NCBI RefSeq assembly: GCF_900104065.1
Contig: NZ_FNLC01000002.1
Location: 664,995 to 728,994, forward strand
Source: Natronobacterium texcoconense
Lineage (GTDB): Archaea > Halobacteriota > Halobacteria > Halobacteriales > Natrialbaceae
DNA: 64,000 bases
Direction of reading: 5' to 3'
Shown here one piece after another: positions 4,093-18,945 of this stretch. The notes under the pieces are model-generated. The model did no database searches, had not been told where the DNA came from, and saw only the letters and a program-made list of their open reading frames with translations. Position numbers and translations under genes: made by a program. Within the stretch, counting starts at the first letter, position 1. Each line of letters opens with the position of its first letter.

Positions 4093-5466
4093 CTAGTGAC
4101 TTTCCACGGAGGAAGTCGAGAGAGCACCCGCCATATTTTGTAGCCACTCTGACTCCTGATCGGAATTCTCCGCAGCCAATACTAGATCTTTCCCGTTCAG
4201 GTGCGTAACGACATCACTGACTCCACTTGTCTGAACACCGTTAGTGATGAGGAGATTACTCACAGAAACATCCGAACTCTCGATGAGATACCCCTCATGA
4301 GTGGCAAACTGCCGATATCGCAGAAGTTCTTCGAGTCCCTGTTTGAAGACCTGGTAGTCTTCGGATTCTTTGATTTCGCCGATGAGGACTGACTGGAGTT
4401 GATCGACAGTGTCGCCTGTCTCGTAGATTTCGATAATGACGTCAGGACGACCGCGGTAAAGCACTGGGTCTGACTTGTCACCAGTCAATTCGCTGAGGAC
4501 GTCTCGGTAGTCGAATACCGAGTCGTAGTATCGTTTGAACGCCGAGTGTTCTGGCGGGTCATCGGCATCAAGTACTTCGTGAAAACTGAGGTTACCAGTC
4601 GCATCGTGGTATATTTCGATACGTTGGTCGTCGGTTTTGAGCGTTGCTAACGCTCCCGTGTCACCGTCTATTGGTTGGAGTTGGAAGCCAGGAACGTATT
4701 CGTTGAGAAGACGCGTGATGCGGAAAACACAGAAGAGCTCGAAGAGGCGAGGCGTAGATGTCGGGGCAATGAGTGTCTCCCCAAGAAGTTCGACGATGTC
4801 TGGATCGAACCGGTCTGCGTGGAGCCGTTCGAACGTATCGTAGAGGGCGTGGGCGTCGTTGTAGAGGGTGAGACGAGATCGTCTGGCAGCCGTAAGGTCT
4901 TGCCCGGTGACTGTGAGACGCTGCCCGTCGGTGATGCGGTTCAGGTGGACATTTTGCTTGTAGAGCCGGGAGAACTGGTTGATTTGCTCGTCGGTCCAGT
5001 ATTCGCGGCGCCAGTCGTAATCAATGTCTTCCAACTCAGTTGTAACAGTCCGATGGATTTTCCAGAGGAGGCGTTTCAGAACACGGTTCTCTGGGATGTT
5101 ATATTCGGTGTAGGGTGTATCACAGACATACCGACTCTGGTCGGCGTATCCAGTATCAGACCAGTCTCGGAGGGTCGAACTCCAGTCGATCGAACCCCGG
5201 ACTTCGCCCTGTGTCTCGACGTGCTCCCGCTGATGTTCTGTTTTGATTCGCCTGATTCGATCGGGAAGCGCCGTGATAAAGTCCTGGACGTCCTCGGTGA
5301 GACAGAAATGAATGCGTTTGATGCGATCCCAGTCACGGATATCGAGCCCTTCGTAGTCGAGTGACTGGGTGAGTGCAGTCGTGTTTATCTCGCCGTTGAG
5401 AAGATACGCAAGTAACTCCGCAGTGGTTTCCTCGACGAGCGTCTCTCGAGTGAGACTACGTTTCAT
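4093..5466 (-). CDS. McrC-like nuclease subunit of a type IV restriction system
   Basis: Predicted partner nuclease of the McrB-like motor upstream. The C-terminal third contains a PD-(D/E)XK core: GRPDVIIEIYE supplies the Asp and VLIGEIKESED the Glu-x-Lys, followed by helix FKQGLEELLRY. The N-terminal two thirds (DWSSTLRDW, NRVLKRLLWKIH, LFELFCVFRITRLL) resembles the McrC/DUF2357-type scaffold. The frame is open to 5541, but ATG 5466 (MKRSLTRETL) overlaps the McrB stop by 11 bases and is the natural coupled start, giving 457 aa. Known McrBC systems cut DNA carrying modified cytosines; this specificity is inferred only. Confidence 0.75.
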   Translation of the reverse strand: MKRSLTRETLVEETTAELLAYLLNGEINTTALTQSLDYEGLDIRDWDRIKRIHFCLTEDVQDFITALPDRIRRIKTEHQREHVETQGEVRGSIDWSSTLRDWSDTGYADQSRYVCDTPYTEYNIPENRVLKRLLWKIHRTVTTELEDIDYDWRREYWTDEQINQFSRLYKQNVHLNRITDGQRLTVTGQDLTAARRSRLTLYNDAHALYDTFERLHADRFDPDIVELLGETLIAPTSTPRLFELFCVFRITRLLNEYVPGFQLQPIDGDTGALATLKTDDQRIEIYHDATGNLSFHEVLDADDPPEHSAFKRYYDSVFDYRDVLSELTGDKSDPVLYRGRPDVIIEIYETGDTVDQLQSVLIGEIKESEDYQVFKQGLEELLRYRQFATHEGYLIESSDVSVSNLLITNGVQTSGVSDVVTHLNGKDLVLAAENSDQESEWLQNMAGALSTSSVESH

Positions 5467-8203
5467 CGTCGAACGTGATGCCGAAGAAGTCCGTCGCTTT
5501 GCTTCGTAGCAACGCCCCATCGAGCGGGAGATCGACGTCACCGTTTTCAGTAGGAACGTTACTGTCGGTCAGCGACTGGATCACCCGATTTTGCTGTTCG
5601 GGTCGCATTCCCTCGAGTTGCGGATAGACGAGAGAGATGACTGCAGACGTCAGCGCGTCGCTTCGCGTGTCGTCTGTGTAATCGTAGGAGTCGAGATATC
5701 GGATGATGTCGTAGACGATCGATGGACCGATAACTCGGTCTTCGTTGATGCGCTGCCACAGCACCGCAACGACGGGATATACGTCTTCGAGAACTGGGCG
5801 GAGCGTATCGTCGTCTTCGAGCCATGCCGTCGCGTAATTGTCGTCGGCATTTGGATCAAGCAATGATGTTCGGACGCGACCGTTCTCGGTGGTAAGATCC
5901 GGAACACCGACGTGGATGAAGTTGAAGCGACGCATGAACGCGTACGACATTTCGTATAGCGAGGTTTTGTCATACGTGTTCATTGTCGCGATGAGCCGCC
6001 AAGACGGCGTGACTGGGAACGCGTCCGGGTTCGAAATCACGTCTTCGAGATCCTCACGTGACGTGGATTCAGAGAGCGAGAGGAGTTCGACGGTTCGGTC
6101 GCGTTCGTAGGGAAGTTCCGTGGAGTCACCGGACAGCACTGAAAAGAGCTGTCCGAAGGCCTTGTCGATGTCTGACCGGTTGATTTCGTCGATGATGAGC
6201 CACTCGTTGACGATACGGTCCTGCCGGAAGCATTTCAGGAACAGCCGGGGTTCGAACTGTAACTCTTGACCGCCGTCACTGGTGGACGGAACGTATCCAC
6301 CGATCGTATCGAACGCGGTCCATTCCGAGGTCGCAGTCGTGAATCGATATCCATCGATCTGATCGTAGGAGGTGGCAGATTCGGAGATCGCTTTGGCGAG
6401 TTTTGTTTTTCCGGTGCCGGGTGGGCCAGTGAGGATGATGTGTTTTCCAGAGCGAAGCGAGGCTTCGATCTCTCGTTCTAATCGGTCGTCGTCTTCGAAG
6501 TACAACTCGTCAGGAACCGAGATGTCGACCTGTGGTGGGGTTAGTTTCTGGGCGAGTCTGTCGATAGCGTCCTGTGAGACGCCGTCCGTGACGGGTTCCT
6601 CTAATGCCAGTATCGTTTCGAATTCGTCTTCGGTAAGCGGGAAGAGACTTCCCTGAGCACGGTTCGAGATCGGTGCTGCATCTTCGAGATCTGGAACGGC
6701 ATTGAGTTCTTCCCAGCTAATCCCGTCGATACGCCGATCGACGCGGATTCGAATCCCTGCATCCGTTTCAGGAGTGTTCTCGGTAGCAGATTCGACTGTT
6801 CCGTCGACGCTGTTGGAATTAGGATTGAATCCGTCGATCACAGTGCCTTCAGCAACGATCTCCTTGACGGGGGTAGACTCGTAAAAGAGTACACGATCAC
6901 CAGGAGATGCCGACGTAAACGCGTCGAACAGTCGTTTTTTGTTCCCCTTCTCGTTGTACGCAGTATAGTAGACCTCGCCGTTGTCGTCGATATCTGTAAC
7001 GGACCAGATCGAGGGATCTGCTGTCGCCCAGAAGTAATTCGTGGGTTGCTCTTCGCCAGATGTCGGAACCTCAATATCAGCTGGTGTTACGTCGGAAGCG
7101 GCGAATAGGTACTCTCCGGCACTACGAGAAAGATGACACAGATACGCTTGAATGATATCGCCGTTTTTATCGATCGGATATCGATTCTGTTCTTGTTTGA
7201 GTTTCGAATTCCGGAGTGTTGGCTTGATATCAGACAATTCAAGCGGGTCATCGAGTTCCGTGATATCGACTTCAACCCGGTAGTACTCTCCGTCCTCCAT
7301 TTCGGTTTTAGTAGCAGTACTCTCGACGACAGAGACACCGCGTATTTCTTGGTCTCTCTTGTGGAATACGACGTCACCCGGCTCGAGAACAGTCAGATCT
7401 CGTTGCCATGCCGTATCCCGTGAGCGAAGATACTCGTTCTCGAATTCGATAGACCGATTCTGGTTTACCCAGTAAAACTCGACATTGTCAGCGATATCTT
7501 GAGCTTGCGTCGTGTCGACGCGTAAGTGCTGATTCTTGTCGATCCAGTTGAAGAAACTATCCAGATGCCGGAAATCGTCCTCGAACGGATACTTTTCTTT
7601 CACCGTTCGGAACTTTTTAATGTCATTAATGTACTCTGTGAGTGCTCGAGATGTACGGTATCCGAAGTACTTCTCCATTCCTGCTCTGGAACGGTCGTTA
7701 CTGATCGGATATTTTGTTGGGTGTAGAAAATAGAGTATCGGAGAAACGATACCGGCTTGTACTCGATCGATGTTCAGCGCGGCGAACTCCTCGATTGCAG
7801 TGTCGATTTCGTCCCGCTCATCTGCAGTAACAGCAGACTCGAGAAACGCAAAGGCTTCATCTTCATAGCCGTCGATCGGGACACTATAGGTTCCTTTCCC
7901 GACGATACCGGTCCCCTCCTCGATTCGTTCTTTGAGTTCTGTTTTCGTCTCCTGATCAATATCTAACTCGTCGATCCGCTCTTTCTTCGATCCAGGCTTG
8001 AACGCTTGATCGTTCTGGCAGATATTATAGATCGTCCGCATCTCTGTTTCATCGATACTGCCGGTTTCCACGAGACTGGTTACAAGCACCTGTACTGCCT
8101 GCGACGTATTCTGAACATGTGCTTTGTCTTGTTCCCAATCGTGATCTGCAATATATTTCTCAACCAGCTGGTCAGTATCTAGTGCTGGACCTGCTTCGAT
8201 CAT
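5456..8203 (-). CDS. McrB-like AAA+ motor with EVE-type modified-base reader domains
   Basis: A 915-aa AAA+ NTPase of the McrB branch. Walker A is GPPGTGKT at about 593-600, Walker B/sensor WLIIDEINRSDIDKAFGQL at about 668-686, and the MNTYDKTSLYE signature lies near 741. Ahead of the motor are two PUA/EVE-like modules. One is at about 241-365 (VEFYWVNQNRS, LEPGDVVFHK). The clearer one is at about 389-510 (NYFWATADPSIWSVTDI, ASPGDRVLFYESTPVKEIVA). Such domains bind modified bases in known McrB relatives. The first 230 residues are helical with no named domain. It is the first gene of the pair with the McrC-like nuclease and is divergent from the HNH gene at 8338. Confidence 0.85.
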   Translation of the reverse strand: MIEAGPALDTDQLVEKYIADHDWEQDKAHVQNTSQAVQVLVTSLVETGSIDETEMRTIYNICQNDQAFKPGSKKERIDELDIDQETKTELKERIEEGTGIVGKGTYSVPIDGYEDEAFAFLESAVTADERDEIDTAIEEFAALNIDRVQAGIVSPILYFLHPTKYPISNDRSRAGMEKYFGYRTSRALTEYINDIKKFRTVKEKYPFEDDFRHLDSFFNWIDKNQHLRVDTTQAQDIADNVEFYWVNQNRSIEFENEYLRSRDTAWQRDLTVLEPGDVVFHKRDQEIRGVSVVESTATKTEMEDGEYYRVEVDITELDDPLELSDIKPTLRNSKLKQEQNRYPIDKNGDIIQAYLCHLSRSAGEYLFAASDVTPADIEVPTSGEEQPTNYFWATADPSIWSVTDIDDNGEVYYTAYNEKGNKKRLFDAFTSASPGDRVLFYESTPVKEIVAEGTVIDGFNPNSNSVDGTVESATENTPETDAGIRIRVDRRIDGISWEELNAVPDLEDAAPISNRAQGSLFPLTEDEFETILALEEPVTDGVSQDAIDRLAQKLTPPQVDISVPDELYFEDDDRLEREIEASLRSGKHIILTGPPGTGKTKLAKAISESATSYDQIDGYRFTTATSEWTAFDTIGGYVPSTSDGGQELQFEPRLFLKCFRQDRIVNEWLIIDEINRSDIDKAFGQLFSVLSGDSTELPYERDRTVELLSLSESTSREDLEDVISNPDAFPVTPSWRLIATMNTYDKTSLYEMSYAFMRRFNFIHVGVPDLTTENGRVRTSLLDPNADDNYATAWLEDDDTLRPVLEDVYPVVAVLWQRINEDRVIGPSIVYDIIRYLDSYDYTDDTRSDALTSAVISLVYPQLEGMRPEQQNRVIQSLTDSNVPTENGDVDLPLDGALLRSKATDFFGITFDDET

Positions 8204-8337
8204 CTTGTTACAAGTGACACACGTATTCGATAAAGAAATACCGACGGTTGAACGGTTTTAGGTGGAAAAGAATTTACTTCGTCCTGGAAACATAATATAG
8301 GGAAAGAAACAATAGCTGGCTCTCTCACTTTTTCTCC

Positions 8338-9327
8338 ATGCCTCCAGAACGGCTCCGCTCGATCGTCCCGATGTTCGGCGGAGCAACGAGTTACGTCGGG
8401 ACACTCGAGGCTATCATCGAATACGTCGACGAACAACACCCCACAACGGACGAGCTCGTAGGCTGGCATCGGGGGAGTTTCGCTCGTGTTTCGAGCCAAG
8501 ACTCGATCATGCGCCGTGTCGAGTACCTCGAGGATGTCGGCTTTCTCGCAACCAGTGATGACCGCTGGGTGCTTGGTCCCGAAGGCGAGCGATACGCTGC
8601 TGATCCGACGACGGAAACACTCCTCGAGCTCATGTGTCGGCGAAACGTCGGTTTGCGAAGTTTGCTCTATGCGCTCTCGGTGGGTCCAATGACGATTGAA
8701 GAAATTGGCTGCCAACAACTCGAGACGCATCCTGAACTGGGCTGGAATCCAGAGAATCCGGACATGGCTCTCCAGCGTGTGAACTGGCTGCGGAGCCTCG
8801 GACTCGTCGAGAAAGATGGTGAACAGTACGTACTCTCAGACGAAGGACGCCAGTTCACCGATACTGCCGTCGAAGCATGGGCCGATTCTGAAGTCGAGAT
8901 TACGTCAACGACAGCAAATCCGATGACAGCAGGAACGTACGAGACGGCTGTCGAAGCTCGGGCAATTGATCCGGAGTTTCGAGCGACTGCATTGGCGCGG
9001 TTCGATCGTACCTGTCCAATCTCGGGTGTAGACCACCCAGGGCTATTGGACGTGGCACACGTTTTATCCTGGAGCGACTATCCCGAGTATCGGGCCGATC
9101 TGTCTAACGTTCTACCACTCAGCAAAACCCATCACGCAGCGTTCGACCGAGAGCTCTTCACCATCGATCAAGACTACCGACTACGAGTGAATCCGGACTT
9201 CGACACGGAGAGTGACCTGCTACAGCGAACGATCGTGGATCAAGCTGGAGAACAGCTACCACTACCAGATGGGAGTGTCGACACAGACTACGTTGTCAAG
9301 CACAACGCGGCGCTCGAGTGGGTATGA
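8338..9327 (+). CDS. Winged-helix repeat protein with C-terminal HNH nuclease
   Basis: A 329-aa protein with two similar winged-helix units (about 15-105 and 105-185: DSIMRRVEYLEDVGFLATSD and MALQRVNWLRSLGLVEKDG), then an HNH domain from about residue 215 (TCPISGVDHPGLLDVAHVLS, NVLPLSKTHHAAFDREL). This HNH type, with CPxxG and DVAHVLSW, is common in prokaryotic restriction-associated nucleases. It is divergent from mcrB with 134 bp between starts, which suggests shared control and one defence cassette. The reaction is presumed double-strand DNA cleavage; specificity unknown. Confidence 0.75.
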   Translation: MPPERLRSIVPMFGGATSYVGTLEAIIEYVDEQHPTTDELVGWHRGSFARVSSQDSIMRRVEYLEDVGFLATSDDRWVLGPEGERYAADPTTETLLELMCRRNVGLRSLLYALSVGPMTIEEIGCQQLETHPELGWNPENPDMALQRVNWLRSLGLVEKDGEQYVLSDEGRQFTDTAVEAWADSEVEITSTTANPMTAGTYETAVEARAIDPEFRATALARFDRTCPISGVDHPGLLDVAHVLSWSDYPEYRADLSNVLPLSKTHHAAFDRELFTIDQDYRLRVNPDFDTESDLLQRTIVDQAGEQLPLPDGSVDTDYVVKHNAALEWV

Positions 9328-9384
9328 GGAATACTACAGGAATCAAACAAAGGTATTTAGATTTGTGTATGAAATATAAGTAAT

Positions 9385-9924
9385 ATGCCTCGGTTTGAGT
9401 GTGAGACATGTGGGGAGAGTTTCAACAGCAAAATGAATCTTGAGTACCATCAGGATCTGGTCGACTGTAGCGCTCCCGAGCCATCACCGAACGAAGAATC
9501 ATCCTCGCAGTCATCTCCACGGGAATTAGTCGAAGCAGAGGCAACAGGGACCGTAATCACATATGACGAGGACCGGGGTTTCGGGTTTGTCGCAACTACA
9601 GACGTCACACGAACTCTCTCGAATGGTGACGAACTCATGGAGGAAGCCTTCTTTCACATCTCCGATATCGATTCAACATGGATCGAAGAAGGAGATCGGC
9701 TACAATTTGACGTCATTAGGAACGAAAAGGGATTGAAGTGTGAAGACATCGAGATCGTCTCTCGTAATCGGGATCGAGAGTCTTACGATAAGCCAGAGGA
9801 CGATTACACGAAATCCCGTCTGGGCTTCGGTCACCAAAAGGACGATACAAAATATGGTCCTGGGAAGGCATCCCCGACCGAACTCGATATTGAGAACTTC
9901 CGAGATGAACGTAAGTTCCGATGA
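9385..9924 (+). CDS. C2H2 zinc finger plus cold-shock domain protein
   Basis: A 179-aa protein. Residues 4-29 form a C2H2-like finger (FECETCGESFNSKMNLEYH followed by a cysteine). After an acidic linker, residues about 53-132 are a cold-shock/S1-like OB fold with the RNP1-type motif RGFGFVATTD and the RNP2-like AFFHISDID. It probably binds single-stranded RNA or DNA. A TATA-like AAATATAA lies just upstream. The tail is charged and disordered. The combination is uncommon; the role on this island is unknown. Confidence 0.75.
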   Translation: MPRFECETCGESFNSKMNLEYHQDLVDCSAPEPSPNEESSSQSSPRELVEAEATGTVITYDEDRGFGFVATTDVTRTLSNGDELMEEAFFHISDIDSTWIEEGDRLQFDVIRNEKGLKCEDIEIVSRNRDRESYDKPEDDYTKSRLGFGHQKDDTKYGPGKASPTELDIENFRDERKFR

Positions 9925-10016
9925 CCGACAGTCGAAGGAGCACTACGGGCGTTCGACCGACCCACCCCTTCTGCTTACCATAAACGTCTTCAATACCTAC
10001 TAGTAAATATAAATTC

Positions 10017-10484
10017 ATGTCCGGCACTATTGATAGTTCTACAACAATATACACGATCGGTTTTACGAAGAAAGATGCACGTACATTTTTTGGCCTCCTT
10101 GAGGACGCAAACATCCAACGTCTTTTCGATGTACGTCTCAATAACCGCTCTCAGTTAGCCGGCTTCGCCAAGCGAGATGATCTGAAATACTTCCTCGACT
10201 CGCTGCTCGAGATAGACTACGACCATCGTGAATCACTGGCTCCGACAAAAGAACTGCTCGATGCATGGCGTGATGATACTATCAGCTGGACCGAATACGA
10301 ACGAAGGTTCGAACAGTTGTTACGTGACCGCGAGATCGAGAAGACCCTAGATCCAGCTCTATTCGAAGAACCGACTGTGCTGCTTTGCAGTGAACATAAG
10401 CCTGAGTACTGTCACCGACGGCTTATTGTCGAGTACTTGAACGACCATTGGGGGAATGTCGAAGGTGTTCACCTAACGGGGTAG
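10017..10484 (+). CDS. DUF488 family protein
   Basis: A 155-aa protein with the DUF488 hallmarks: N-terminal TIGF, LFDVRLNNRSQLAGFAKRD, and C-terminal VLLCSEHKPEYCHRRLIVEYL with conserved Cys and His-Arg-Arg. The biochemical role of the family is not established. It starts a compact cluster with the next plus-strand gene five bases on and a DUF4326 gene after that, families I recall seeing together. An AT-rich TATA-like stretch directly precedes the ATG. Confidence 0.85.
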   Translation: MSGTIDSSTTIYTIGFTKKDARTFFGLLEDANIQRLFDVRLNNRSQLAGFAKRDDLKYFLDSLLEIDYDHRESLAPTKELLDAWRDDTISWTEYERRFEQLLRDREIEKTLDPALFEEPTVLLCSEHKPEYCHRRLIVEYLNDHWGNVEGVHLTG

Positions 10485-10488
10485 TCTT

Positions 10489-11190
10489 ATGCCAGACGCT
10501 ATCGAGATGGTTTGCCTAGCCAATTCGGAGAAGCACGGGGACCGCTGTGTAGCCGGGGTGCGGCTTGATACAGGCGGCTGGTTACGCCCTGTTTCGGACG
10601 ATACCGGTGCAGGACTCTTAGAGTCCCAATATGAGACTGTCTCGGGACATCATCCTGAACCGCTTGATACTGTCCGAGTTAAGCTTGATCACCAGTGGCC
10701 GAAGTACCATCAACCCGAAAACTGGGTCATCTCATCTGAGTCGTGGGAGCTCATTGATACTGAGTTGCACGATCGAGCGATATTAGCAATCAACGCTGCC
10801 CTCCAACGTGAAGGCACTATTTTGCATGATACAGCACATGCTATCCCGAAACGTGAGCTAACGAATACTCCTGTTTTTCGTTCTCTCACGCTTATTTCTC
10901 CAACTGAACCTACGTTTTACGTTCGTGAGAAGGACGATGGTACCATTCAACCACGAACAGCTTTTGAATTTGACGGACACGAATACGACCTCCCTATTAC
11001 TGATCCGACATGGCGACAGCAAGCCCGAACAGCAGGCGTCGGGTCACTTCCTTCCGAAGAGATTGTTAGCGACCACGAGGAAATCCTCTTCACGATTAGC
11101 CTAGGTGAAGCAAGTGACGAAAATAAGATGTGTTATAAAATTGTGGCTGCAGTTTTCTCTCTGCAGGCATCTCACCTGATTGGGTTTTAA
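10489..11190 (+). CDS. Dual OB-like domain protein
   Basis: A 233-aa protein starting MPDAIEMVCLANSEKHGDRC, followed by GGWLRPVSDD and repeated beta-strand stretches (DTVRVKLDHQWPKYHQPENW, PTFYVREKDD). This matches my memory of the dual OB-containing family. Such folds suggest nucleic-acid or nucleotide binding. It begins four bases after the DUF488 stop, so it is almost certainly cotranscribed, and it overlaps the convergent DUF4326 stop by four bases. Family assignment is from memory. Confidence 0.6.
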   Translation: MPDAIEMVCLANSEKHGDRCVAGVRLDTGGWLRPVSDDTGAGLLESQYETVSGHHPEPLDTVRVKLDHQWPKYHQPENWVISSESWELIDTELHDRAILAINAALQREGTILHDTAHAIPKRELTNTPVFRSLTLISPTEPTFYVREKDDGTIQPRTAFEFDGHEYDLPITDPTWRQQARTAGVGSLPSEEIVSDHEEILFTISLGEASDENKMCYKIVAAVFSLQASHLIGF

Positions 11191-11525
11191 TCTTCTTCTG
11201 GTTCCACTTCCAAATTTCCTCGGAGGTAAGCCAATATCACGTCCCCATGACAGGCTTTGGGCTTGCACCAACAGCCAAGTGTTTCTCCGCGCAGTTCCTC
11301 AACTGCCGCTCGGAAGTCGGGATCTGTTCTAATTTTCTTCTTGAACCATTTTTCATAGCGGTCAACACTCTCTTGCCGCGTATAGTCGCCACCGTCTTTT
11401 TTCAGCCTAAATGGGTTCCCGAATCGAGTATCTCGGTCAATCATCTGAACTCCCTCCTTCCCATATCGACTCACATTCACAAGCTCGGTCTTTGGCTCAC
11501 CTGTTAGTGTAGACTGATAACCCAT
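11187..11525 (-). CDS. DUF4326 family protein
   Basis: A 112-aa protein with typical DUF4326 elements: TELVNVSRYG, DRDTRFGNPFRLKKDGGDY, and GETLGCWCKPKACHGDVILAYL with a Cys-x-Cys and Cys-His pair. A catalytic role has been suspected for the family but is not shown. It is convergent with the dual-OB gene (four-base overlap of stops) and belongs to the same cassette as DUF488. Confidence 0.85.
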   Translation of the reverse strand: MGYQSTLTGEPKTELVNVSRYGKEGVQMIDRDTRFGNPFRLKKDGGDYTRQESVDRYEKWFKKKIRTDPDFRAAVEELRGETLGCWCKPKACHGDVILAYLRGNLEVEPEED

Positions 11526-11715
11526 GATTGGAGATCCTTGACGATGTTCTGTTCAGCTATATGGTGGTCCTGATACTAAACACTTACAACATCACCGAGA
11601 TGAGGATAGTTTGATCGCTATTGTACTACCAACCTTACTGCCTCAGAACGACTCTCAACCACCAAACCAAAACCATAATTTTGGCTATCTGACTATACAA
11701 CGTTACTGGAAATCT

Positions 11716-12660
11716 ATGGGAGCTCCATGGGTTGGGCGGTTTGCTCCGACATCAGAGATTCAATTGACTAATCATTCCGGTCGGGTTGGCGCTGTGGATG
11801 CATTGAATTGGGTGACAAAGGTAGCGAGCGCTGTGAAAGCGGACGTTCCGTATCAGGTATGGTCGTACTCAGACGGTGGGAGTATAGCGCACGTGATTGG
11901 GACACTTCGCGGTGTTAGAAAGTACATTCGGGCAGATATTCCGTTAATCTTTGTGTTTGATGGAGAGTTTTCGAGTTCGGTTCGCCAGATGACTGATCCA
12001 GAACGGTCGACCGAGGATACACCTTACCCACAAAATGAATTTTTCAGAGAGTCGATGGCAAAAACGTTGGACGCTCTTGATATCCCGTTTGTTAAGGAAT
12101 ATCCATTCGATGGAGAAGCTGGAGCAGCCATGTTGAATCGGGAGGGATACGCTGATTTTGTACTGTCAGATGACTGGGATGCACTTTTGTATGGAGCTGA
12201 AATCCAGATACGTGGTTTCACAGGCCAAGGTCCAGAGGAATTGATTAATCGGCGGGCACTTGAGGCCGAGACCGAATTTTCTCGAAGAGATTTAATCGAT
12301 ATTGCCATTCTTGTTGGGACGGATTATAATGATGGACTTCAAAACGTGAGTGCCGAGTCCGCGATGGATGCTCTCGAAATGTACGGTTCTCTTGAAGCCG
12401 TCTACGATCGTGTTAACGATCGAATGCCAGAAATTATATACGATTTGCGCGATCTATATCTTGATCCGCCCTCTTTTGACGGAGCAAACCTTCCGATTCT
12501 TACTGATCCACCGACACCCACTCCTAAACTAGATACTATTGAATCCTTGTTGACGGAATATGAAGTTCCACCTCAGCTAATTGAACAGGAACTATCTCAC
12601 CTTGAACGAGCACTAGCCCACAGTAAATCAAACAAGACATGCAGGCGTGGGGACAAGTGA
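11716..12660 (+). CDS. FEN1/XPG-type nuclease (flap endonuclease-like)
   Basis: A 314-aa protein in the 5' nuclease superfamily. Signatures in order: VGAVDALNW, the metal Asp of LIFVFDGE, the acidic cluster of FDGEAGAAML, SDDWDALLYGA (FEN1: SEDYDALLFG) and DIAILVGTDYNDG of the helix-hairpin-helix region. Cellular FEN1 cuts 5' flaps in replication and repair. This copy is divergent and, with no visible PIP-box tail (it ends in a Lys/Arg-rich stretch), is unlikely to be the housekeeping enzyme. The frame opens at 11611, but ATG 11716 (MGAPWVGRFA) aligns with the usual FEN1 start. Confidence 0.75.
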   Translation: MGAPWVGRFAPTSEIQLTNHSGRVGAVDALNWVTKVASAVKADVPYQVWSYSDGGSIAHVIGTLRGVRKYIRADIPLIFVFDGEFSSSVRQMTDPERSTEDTPYPQNEFFRESMAKTLDALDIPFVKEYPFDGEAGAAMLNREGYADFVLSDDWDALLYGAEIQIRGFTGQGPEELINRRALEAETEFSRRDLIDIAILVGTDYNDGLQNVSAESAMDALEMYGSLEAVYDRVNDRMPEIIYDLRDLYLDPPSFDGANLPILTDPPTPTPKLDTIESLLTEYEVPPQLIEQELSHLERALAHSKSNKTCRRGDK

Positions 12661-12837: not shown

Positions 12838-13881
12838 TCATAGTTCCTCGAATTGCTCAACTAGCGCGAGATCGCGTTCGAGACGCGGTTCGACGACGGG
12901 GCTACGAATATCGATGTCAAGTTGTTCTTGCTGCCATTCCAGTCCTCTTTTCCCAGACCAAACGCCATACAGCGTGACTTTTGGAAGGGTGAGAACGCCG
13001 AACATCACTGCCATCACGTAGAGCGTGTTCGCGATGTCCGTCCAGGAGGCAGTCACTTTCCGTGGGAGATCGACCGGAAAGGTAACGTGTTGGGCCCAGA
13101 TGTCCTGTGCTCGTGCGTTGTCGACGAATTCGTAGTCGTTGCTGAACAAGAGCACGCGTTTCCGGTTGCCTTTGTCGTATCGTTCGTATGCATCAATGAT
13201 GTCGTCGTCACCGGTATCCGACGGGACGATGTCCACTGCTCGATTCGCCATGCGATTGCGGAACTCGTAGAGCCCGAGAACCCCTATTCGGTTTGCACCT
13301 GCTGGCTGGTCTTTGGTTCGAGCGAACTCCTGGCCGAACGCGTCCTCGAGGGTCTGCGTGGAAAACCGGTTATAGTACCAGTCCAGCTCTTCTTTGACGC
13401 CACCCGATAACGCGTATCCGTTCGTCGGTGGTCGTCCTTCGTCGTCAGTCGACCCTGTCACCGGATCGATATCGAGGATTTCCGGCAGACGGAAGCCGAA
13501 GAGGTTGGTGTCGTACGCGACCATGACAGGGTTGTGACCTGCCGTCAGGTCGGGGTGGGTGTGCCGGTCGAGAAACGTCTCGATCTCGTCGGCGTTCTCC
13601 GGTTCGACGAGGCCACCTGCAACAGCCGCTTTGACGTATTCGTTGTGCCCGGGAAGATCCTCGTATGGATCTTCTCCGAACTGCTGACGGACTGCGTCCC
13701 TGCTCTCTCGATAGCTGATCGTCCCCTGCGTGAACCGGACCGTACTCCGACGGCGTTTCTCGAGCTCGATTCGAAACAGTTCACCGACTGTATTGCAGGG
13801 GTGTTCCACGGAGATACTCGTTTTACCCGCGTCGTATAGCGCGTTGAGGACGGTCGTGAGATGGCGACGTGCGACCTCCAT
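12838..13881 (-). CDS. PIN-domain nuclease partner of the CARF protein
   Basis: A 347-aa protein. From residue about 118 it shows the acidic set of PIN-fold RNases: D124 in VMVAYDTN, E164/E165 in GGVKEELDW, an Asp run with the PIN-like pattern GDDDIIDAY at about 225-232, and D249 in LLFSNDYEFVDNA. About 115 N-terminal residues and 80 C-terminal residues lie outside this core. Its ATG shares a base with the stop of the CARF gene (TAATG), so the two are coupled. I infer an RNase whose activity is gated by the CARF partner. PIN is read from motifs, not a search. Confidence 0.65.
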   Translation of the reverse strand: MEVARRHLTTVLNALYDAGKTSISVEHPCNTVGELFRIELEKRRRSTVRFTQGTISYRESRDAVRQQFGEDPYEDLPGHNEYVKAAVAGGLVEPENADEIETFLDRHTHPDLTAGHNPVMVAYDTNLFGFRLPEILDIDPVTGSTDDEGRPPTNGYALSGGVKEELDWYYNRFSTQTLEDAFGQEFARTKDQPAGANRIGVLGLYEFRNRMANRAVDIVPSDTGDDDIIDAYERYDKGNRKRVLLFSNDYEFVDNARAQDIWAQHVTFPVDLPRKVTASWTDIANTLYVMAVMFGVLTLPKVTLYGVWSGKRGLEWQQEQLDIDIRSPVVEPRLERDLALVEQFEEL

Positions 13882-14348
13882 TAGACCACCTCCGTGAAAT
13901 CGATGAGATCGACCGCTGGACGCGGAATGTCGGGGAACAGCTGGCCGTAGAACTCGCTCGAGTCCAGCAACAGGTAGAACACGTGGTCGGCACCGTATCG
14001 AACACCTGCCTGGAACGCGATTGCCGACATATACTTGCGACCGGGTGTGATATCAACGGCGACCTGTTCGTTTGCTCCCGCATCCTCGATTCCTTCCCGA
14101 AAGAAATCGACTATCTCTGTGAAGGCCGTCTCTTCGGAGACGGTGTGAACGTCGACTGTCGTGTCTGCGTCGTACTCCTCACCGATCGTCTCCAGAAGTG
14201 GAACGACAGATGAGATGTCGTCTTCGACAGTCGGATTCGACAAGATTTGAACCGAGTCGGGGACGTAGCCGTCTTCACAGGCGGCCAGTAAGGGATTGGT
14301 CATCGCCTCGGTTGTGGGACTGGCAATTGTCAGCCAGTGACGGTCCAT
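13881..14348 (-). CDS. Stand-alone CARF-domain protein
   Basis: A 155-aa Rossmann-like protein. It starts with a beta strand and loop, WLTIASPTTEAMTNPLLA, and ends with the CARF hallmark VAVDITPGRKYMSAIAF followed by strand HVFYLLL. CARF domains bind cyclic oligoadenylates made by type III CRISPR complexes, and some degrade them. Here CARF is a separate polypeptide at the head of a two-gene operon with a PIN nuclease. No CRISPR array, Cas10 or other cyclase is in the window, so the ligand source is unknown. Alternative: a ring nuclease or a sensor of another nucleotide. Confidence 0.7.
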   Translation of the reverse strand: MDRHWLTIASPTTEAMTNPLLAACEDGYVPDSVQILSNPTVEDDISSVVPLLETIGEEYDADTTVDVHTVSEETAFTEIVDFFREGIEDAGANEQVAVDITPGRKYMSAIAFQAGVRYGADHVFYLLLDSSEFYGQLFPDIPRPAVDLIDFTEVV

Positions 14349-17694: not shown

Positions 17695-17769
17695 GAGCGG
17701 AACTTAAAACATACTTGAGTAAATTGACCGTTACTCAAATTTATATGTTTGCAGTGTATCACATACGCT

Positions 17770-18945
17770 GTGGCAGAGCAGGATACTGCTGAGTGGATAA
17801 GCACACTCACGAAGCGGTTAGATGAGATAGAGGAGAATAGGTATACCCTTCTGGAAATTCTCGGGAAATCGGAAGACGAGAGGTCTTGGCAATCTATGTT
17901 GACCTATTTTCTTAATCCAAATAAGCCACACGGGTTTGATGAAACTGTGCTTCAGGCGTTTACCAAGGCCATAGAGACGCATCCTGAAACGGATGCATCA
18001 GACCTAAACGTCGATTCTGACGGAGTCAAAGTTGAAACAGAAGTACCGACCCCGCCAAGAGGTTCTGCTGATATACTGATTTACGCTCAAAATGAATGGT
18101 TTATTTGTATCGAAATGAAAGTTGATTCGGGCGAAACAGGTGACCAGACCGAAAGATATTATCACTCTCCAAGACTCGGCAGTTTAGTCAAAGCCCGGCA
18201 TAGCGCCCGTGGCGGGGAAAGTGAATACGTTTACCTCGCGCCAGAAAGTGCTTCAGCCCCATATAAACATGAATTTGTTCACGTCTCATGGAGAGATGTC
18301 GTTCCGCATATCGAGGACTGTTTGTCCTCGAACTCAGGAGACCCCCGAAGTGAGATTCAATTGGCTGACTTCATCCGTAATATCAAGAAACACCTTACCA
18401 TGAAAGACTTCGACGCCATTTCAGAAGAAGCACAGTTGTACGCCGATCACAAATCGAAACTCGAAGACGCCAGAGATGAGTTCAGAGAAGAGAGAGACAG
18501 ATTAAAAACAAATATCAAGAGCGGTCTGAGGAAAGCATTTGAAGAAGAGAGTTGGAAAACACGTAAATCCGGAAAATCTTCAACATGGATACAACTGTAC
18601 AAAAAAGGGTGGCACAATGAAGATTTTAATATCGAATATGAGCCACATGTGCTCCTAGATGATCAACCAGCTAAAATTGGACTATACGTAGACATAGAAC
18701 GGGGGGATAAAAGCATAAAAAGTGATGTCAAAGATTATATTTACGAACATGCTGATGAGGCAGAATTAAAGAGACTGGGATGGACCATGACCGGAGATGT
18801 GAAACCCTGTCTGGAAAAGCATCTTAGCCTGGATATGGAATCACCTGCTGATACCATTGATGAGGCCATTCAGTCACTCAAGGCGCTCGATGCAGAAATA
18901 GGGGTCGAGATCGACGATGCTGTACGCATGTACTCGTCTGAATAA
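17770..18945 (+). CDS. PD-(D/E)XK nuclease-family protein
   Basis: A protein of about 391 aa. The N-terminal half carries a nuclease-like core: RSWQSMLTYFLNPNKPHGF, PRGSADILIYAQNEWFICIE with MKVDSGETGDQTERY (Asp, Glu-x-Lys, downstream Gln). This looks like the PDDEXK_4-type family often found in defence islands. A coiled-coil (ARDEFREERDRLKTNIK) leads to a second domain. GTG 17770 is my preferred start, because TTTATATG at 17740-17747 sits about 25 bases before it; TTG 17749 is the alternative. The gene is AT-rich compared with its neighbours, suggesting recent transfer. Confidence 0.7.
   Translation: MAEQDTAEWISTLTKRLDEIEENRYTLLEILGKSEDERSWQSMLTYFLNPNKPHGFDETVLQAFTKAIETHPETDASDLNVDSDGVKVETEVPTPPRGSADILIYAQNEWFICIEMKVDSGETGDQTERYYHSPRLGSLVKARHSARGGESEYVYLAPESASAPYKHEFVHVSWRDVVPHIEDCLSSNSGDPRSEIQLADFIRNIKKHLTMKDFDAISEEAQLYADHKSKLEDARDEFREERDRLKTNIKSGLRKAFEEESWKTRKSGKSSTWIQLYKKGWHNEDFNIEYEPHVLLDDQPAKIGLYVDIERGDKSIKSDVKDYIYEHADEAELKRLGWTMTGDVKPCLEKHLSLDMESPADTIDEAIQSLKALDAEIGVEIDDAVRMYSSE

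What the first reader, a model, noticed from the sequence alone, without database searches (positions are those of the whole stretch)
12838..14348. Two-gene CARF plus PIN operon with no CRISPR locus in sight
A stand-alone CARF-like protein (VAVDITPGRKYMSA hallmark) is translationally coupled (TAATG) to a protein with four PIN-type acidic positions (D124, E165, the DDDIID run, D249). CARF effectors normally carry their nuclease in the same chain and depend on type III CRISPR cyclic oligoadenylate. Here sensor and nuclease are split, and no cas gene or array is present in 64 kb. It may be a CRISPR-independent nucleotide-gated RNase system, or it may borrow signals from a distant type III locus.
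Basis: partly seen in the sequence, partly recalled or inferred. Interest (0 to 1): 0.78.

Follow-up and report, generated by a model that had tools for sequence, protein, structure and literature searches.

The report
CRISPR-free split CARF–PIN effector pair
Two overlapping genes in a salt-loving archaeon encode a nucleotide-sensing protein and a predicted RNA-cutting enzyme of a kind known from type III CRISPR immunity, yet this organism and about one in seven of its relatives carry the pair with no CRISPR machinery able to make the expected signal, so something unknown must switch it on.

Summary
Window 13881-14348 (-) encodes a CARF protein and 12838-13881 (-) a PIN nuclease, coupled by TAATG. 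Confident models (pLDDT 90.6 and 94.2) both match the same solved protein best: SiRe_0806, a single-chain Sulfolobus CARF-PIN crystallised with cA4. All PIN catalytic acids are invariant in 95/95 relatives. PADLOC already holds the family (CARF_m1), so the parts are known. Splitting is the rule, not an oddity: about 90 adjacent pairs were found across the phylum, including pairs inside genuine type III operons. What is unusual is independence: of 391 haloarchaeal genomes about 55 carry the family, none of those has Cas10 or RAMP genes, and this genome also lacks Cas1, mCpol and an SMODS cyclase. All haloarchaeal PINs form one clade whose nearest relatives mostly sit beside Cas10, so a type III effector was apparently recruited to a CRISPR-free life in defence islands and on plasmids. 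Most likely it is a ligand-gated RNase causing dormancy; ligand and RNase activity are inferred. An ADP-ribosylglycohydrolase gene is a strongly enriched neighbour. A distant type III locus cannot be the signal source here. New variant of a known kind.

The parts
13881..14348 (-). CARF sensor protein, 155 aa (CARF_m1 family)
12838..13881 (-). PIN-domain predicted RNase, 347 aa, with ~110-residue N-terminal domain and conserved C-terminal extension
13879..13883 (-). TAATG stop/start overlap (translational coupling)
   Evidence: overlap of -1 or -4 in 46 of 55 loci
14022..14063 (-). CARF motif VAVDITPGRKYMSA; D99, T101, G103, R104, K105 near-invariant phylum-wide; DITPGRKYM also in cA4-bound SiRe_0806
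13510..13512 (-). PIN catalytic D124 (DTN motif)
   Evidence: invariant 95/95
13387..13389 (-). PIN catalytic E165
   Evidence: invariant 95/95
13207..13209 (-). PIN catalytic D225 (in DDDIID)
   Evidence: invariant 95/95
13135..13137 (-). PIN catalytic D249 (SND motif)
   Evidence: invariant 95/95

Best explanation
The two genes make a split version of the CARF-PIN effector typified by SiRe_0806 of Sulfolobus islandicus. The CARF protein, expected to act as a dimer, binds a small nucleotide-type ligand at the DITPGRK site; binding activates the separately encoded PIN subunit in a CARF/PIN complex, which then cuts RNA and arrests or kills the infected cell. In haloarchaea the module probably descends from a type III CRISPR ancillary effector pair but works without Cas10, so the ligand must come from another enzyme, from the virus, or from infection-damaged RNA. 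Shown here: folds, catalytic and ligand-site conservation, universal pairing, monophyly of the haloarchaeal clade, absence of known synthases in this genome. Inferred: complex formation, ligand binding, RNase activity, role in defence.
For: Both models match the same solved CARF-PIN protein best, one entry of which is a cA4 complex. PADLOC CARF_m1 hits for both chains. Universal pairing and overlap; correlated divergence of the two proteins, rho 0.645, 0 of 999 permutations as high. Catalytic tetrad invariant in 95/95, CARF motif nearly so. Haloarchaeal PINs are one clade (100/97) whose closest relatives are mostly Cas10-adjacent; relative L105 sits in a complete type III operon with Cas6, Cas10, Csm3, Cas5-like, Csm3-like proteins, CARF, PIN, Csx1 and Cas1. 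No Cas10 or RAMP in any of the 55 haloarchaeal carriers. Patchy spread (1 of 5 genomes of the genus), plasmids, and neighbours such as BREX, AddAB-like, HNH and McrB-like genes fit mobile defence.
Against: No ligand source is identified; regulation could be protein-based. No complex was modelled (the tool folds single chains). Divergence from SiRe_0806 is large (about 20% and 10% identity over the structural alignments). No experiment shows RNA cleavage or anti-viral activity. Cas10/RAMP detection relied on two families; very divergent type III genes could be missed, although the two true haloarchaeal type III loci were found at E near 1e-23.
Confidence: 0.6

Rival explanations
1. A toxin-antitoxin-like module: the CARF protein restrains the PIN toxin in a complex and releases it when a ligand binds or when CARF is lost, rather than activating it.
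For: Gene order small regulator then PIN with 1-4 nt overlap is the VapBC-type layout; strict one-to-one pairing; plasmid location and patchiness.
Against: Partner is a Rossmann CARF, not a DNA-binding antitoxin; the fused SiRe_0806 and haloarchaeal fusions L090/L091 argue for allosteric coupling; the PIN subunit is far larger than VapC (347 aa).
Confidence: 0.2
2. The pair answers cyclic oligoadenylate made by type III systems or cyclases brought in by plasmids, viruses or neighbours (borrowed signal).
For: DITPGRKYM motif shared with SiRe_0806, which is solved with cA4; sister pairs lie in type III operons.
Against: Type III is nearly absent from haloarchaea: Cas10 in 2/391, RAMPs in 3/391, none in carriers; mCpol 0/80, SMODS cyclases 4/40 carriers v 4/40 non-carriers.
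Confidence: 0.1
3. The CARF subunit is chiefly a ring nuclease (as NCBI names some members), destroying a cyclic nucleotide, with the PIN a partner of that reaction.
For: NCBI calls three plasmid CARFs 'CRISPR-associated ring nuclease'; Foldseek hits include the Sso2081/Sis0455 ring nucleases at lower rank.
Against: NCBIfam ring-nuclease models stay far below cut-off (13 bits v 125 for Crn1); always paired with a catalytically intact PIN; no cOA producer to counteract in carriers.
Confidence: 0.07

Closest known systems
SiRe_0806 (PDB 9jxw/9jxx), Sulfolobus islandicus CARF-PIN with cA4
   Same: Best structural match of both proteins; same CARF then PIN order; DITPGRKYM motif
   Different: One chain of 429 aa versus two chains here; its host lineage has type III CRISPR (own knowledge), this genome does not
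CARF_m1 family of PADLOC (PDLC01971/01972 CARF, PDLC01973 CARF_PIN), which I believe follows the published CARF classification (Makarova 2020, recalled, text not held)
   Same: P0002 and P0001 are members by profile score
   Different: The catalogue does not by itself record the coupled two-gene layout or the absence of Cas10 in haloarchaea, as far as I could check
Split CARF+PIN in or beside type III loci of other Halobacteriota-phylum archaea (L102, L103, L105, L106)
   Same: Same two genes, same order, overlapping or abutting; L103, L105 and L106 group next to the haloarchaeal clade
   Different: Embedded beside Cas10, Csm3, Cas6, Csx1, Cas1
VapBC-type toxin-antitoxin pairs
   Same: Small upstream regulator overlapping a PIN gene
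   Different: Partner is a CARF domain; PIN chain is over twice as long

Membership tests
CARF_m1 CARF-PIN effector | CARF-fold sensor of this family | tested here: met
   PDLC01972 E=6.8e-53; Foldseek to CARF proteins
CARF_m1 CARF-PIN effector | PIN nuclease with complete acidic tetrad | tested here: met
   PDLC01973 E=4.9e-25; fold; D124/E165/D225/D249 in 95/95
CARF_m1 CARF-PIN effector | CARF and PIN in a single chain (as in SiRe_0806) | tested here: not met
   Separate overlapping ORFs; but the same split is common in the family and PADLOC has CARF-only models of it, so a single chain is not truly defining
Type III CRISPR-Cas ancillary effector | Encoded with, or in a genome holding, Cas10/type III genes | tested here: not met
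   No PF22335, PF03787 or PF01867 in G000
Type III CRISPR-Cas ancillary effector | Activated by cyclic oligoadenylate | not testable with these tools
   Only motif conservation with SiRe_0806, solved with cA4
CBASS or mCpol (Panoptes-like) system | Dedicated nucleotide cyclase in the genome | tested here: not met
   mCpol 0/80 genomes, no SMODS match in G000
VapBC toxin-antitoxin | PIN gene overlapping a small upstream gene | tested here: met
   TAATG
VapBC toxin-antitoxin | DNA-binding antitoxin of a known type and compact ~130 aa VapC | tested here: not met
   Partner is CARF; PIN chain 347 aa

The most novel reading that the evidence does not exclude
Haloarchaea run a CRISPR-free nucleotide (or RNA-end) alarm pathway in which a split CARF/PIN pair is fired by a ligand from an unknown synthase or from infection itself, often organised with VWA, HEAT and ADP-ribosylglycohydrolase proteins as a multi-gene defence system.
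Probability: 0.4. Interest if true: 0.78.

Novelty: new variant of a known kind. Interest (0 to 1): 0.58.

Why it matters
CARF domains are generally explained as readers of Cas10 products. A conserved CARF-PIN module in about 14% of sampled haloarchaeal genomes, with intact ligand motif and active site but no Cas10, mCpol or specifically associated CD-NTase, implies another ligand source and shows how a CRISPR effector can leave CRISPR. It gives a defined, testable system in genetically tractable archaea, and warns that the database label 'CRISPR-associated ring nuclease' on these CARFs may mislead.

Tried and rejected
Distant type III locus as signal source: rejected for this genome by whole-genome searches. 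Association with other CRISPR types (Cas1): 12/40 carriers v 10/40 non-carriers, no link. CBASS cyclase: 4/40 v 4/40; mCpol: none. Viral carriage: none in phage records or IMG/VR and no close viral fold. PDB sequence search with the PIN profile found nothing; only fold comparison did. Membrane anchoring of the hydrophobic segment 280-305 of the PIN protein: the model folds it as a helix and strands inside a confident globular domain. The 2020 CARF classification paper is not held, so its exact statements on CARF_m1 could not be checked. No paper on SiRe_0806 was found.

Full report
What is there. On the minus strand two ORFs overlap by one base (TAATG at 13879-13883): a 155-aa protein (14348-13881) and a 347-aa protein (13881-12838). 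The first scores E=6.8e-53 to PADLOC CARF_m1--CARF and the second E=4.9e-25 to CARF_m1--CARF_PIN; Pfam and NCBIfam give only sub-threshold CARF and PIN_4 hits. AlphaFold2 models built from natural homologues are confident (pLDDT 90.6; 94.2). Foldseek puts SiRe_0806 of Sulfolobus islandicus, whose second entry is a cA4 complex, first for both proteins. So the two genes together correspond to one solved CARF-PIN protein.

Is the pair real. A survey of 391 haloarchaeal genomes found the CARF family in 57, in 33 of 86 genera; two of these are weak or broken hits (G246, G360), leaving 55. Of 55 loci in which both genes were called, 51 have them between -4 and +4 bases apart, mostly -1 or -4; the remaining four I put down to PIN start codons called too far upstream. 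CARF and PIN distances correlate (rho 0.645; none of 999 permutations as high), which shared ancestry alone could also give. In three genomes the two are one chain (L090, L091, and a broken copy L089) with the CARF motif changed to SISSGSR. Across the phylum a further 36 or so loci carry the two genes as separate neighbouring ORFs, most overlapping by 4 bases; in three a gap of about 650 bases was measured. Splitting is thus the usual state in this phylum. The catalytic residues D124, E165, D225, D249 with N126, R198 and I228 are invariant in all 95 sequences, and the CARF residues N18, D99, T101, G103, R104, K105, Y125 nearly so.

Relation to CRISPR. The window's genome has no Cas10, no RAMP and no Cas1. 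Cas10 occurs in 2 and RAMP genes in 3 of the 391 haloarchaeal genomes, none of them among the 55 carriers; the two true loci scored near 1e-23, so the search was sensitive enough for them. Cas1 is no commoner in carriers (12/40) than in non-carriers (10/40), SMODS cyclases 4/40 in each, mCpol 0/80. Outside haloarchaea 19 of 49 positive genomes hold Cas10, and five pairs lie within a few kb of it (L102, L103, L105, L106, L121). L105 is a complete type III operon with Cas6, Cas10, Csm3, a Cas5-like protein, two further Csm3-like proteins, CARF, PIN, Csx1 and Cas1; L103 is a type III-A locus. In a PIN tree of 94 sequences the 56 haloarchaeal ones form one clade (100/97), and of the four rows grouped nearest to it three are Cas10-adjacent. 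The tree is midpoint-rooted and some long branches meet, so the direction (from type III to CRISPR-free) is likely, not proven.

Surroundings. The pair is patchy (1 of 5 genomes of its genus), present on a dozen haloarchaeal plasmids, absent from phage records and viral contigs at the sensitivity used, and set among defence-type genes: in the window an EVE-McrB-like ATPase, HNH nuclease, DUF488, DuOB, a FEN1-like nuclease and a HEAT protein; elsewhere BREX and AddAB-like helicase-nucleases. An ADP-ribosylglycohydrolase lies within 3 kb of 13 of 44 pairs; 14 of 41 such genes lie that close against 0.08 expected, though near-identical loci inflate this. In about ten loci a VWA gene and a HEAT gene precede the pair on the same strand, some with the glycohydrolase between. 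The window shares only a HEAT relative, divergently oriented, and its genome has no such glycohydrolase, so these partners are optional.

Mechanism. By homology to SiRe_0806 and to type III CARF nucleases (established knowledge), ligand binding to a CARF dimer should activate the PIN subunit to cut RNA. The strict pairing and the fused relatives favour a direct complex. The ligand is the open question: Cas10 products of the cell itself are excluded here, and no known cyclase is associated. An antitoxin-like role of the CARF is the main rival.

Known or new. The domain family and its CARF-only and CARF_PIN forms are catalogued in PADLOC, and a relative is solved with cA4. What I did not find stated in the papers available is that the two-gene form is the norm in this phylum and that a whole haloarchaeal clade lives without type III. 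The 2025 CRISPR classification (PMC12669027) notes only in general that CARF homologues are abundant outside CRISPR-Cas systems. I rate it a new variant of a known kind.

Noticed in passing
L036-L038, L041, L046, L053, L067, L079, L084, L086, L142: ADP-ribosylglycohydrolase (PF03747) genes adjoin the CARF/PIN pair far above chance (14 of 41 within 3 kb, 0.08 expected); a possible functional partner.
   Followed up: partly
L035-L038, L041, L046, L064, L076, L077, L084: Recurrent cluster: DUF4143 ATPase (opposite strand), then VWA and HEAT-repeat genes leading into the CARF/PIN pair on the same strand; may be a larger defence system.
   Followed up: partly
window 4093-12660: Defence-like island: EVE+McrB-type ATPase (5456-8203 -), weak McrC-like (4093-5541 -), HNH nuclease (8338-9327 +), C2H2/cold-shock protein (9385-9924 +), DUF488 (10017-10484 +), DuOB (10489-11190 +), FEN1-like XPG nuclease (11611-12660 +).
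   Followed up: no
window 17749-18945 +: PDDEXK_4 nuclease (E=2.8e-20) whose relatives recur near the CARF/PIN pair in L047, L078, L080.
   Followed up: no
L142 6552-7001; L143 4513-5001: NCBI names the CARF subunit 'CRISPR-associated ring nuclease' although haloarchaeal carriers hold no type III system; likely a misleading automatic name.
   Followed up: partly
L002: Contig filed as a Candidatus Sumerlaeota MAG encodes a PIN protein 83% identical to the window's; probably a misbinned haloarchaeal contig.
   Followed up: no
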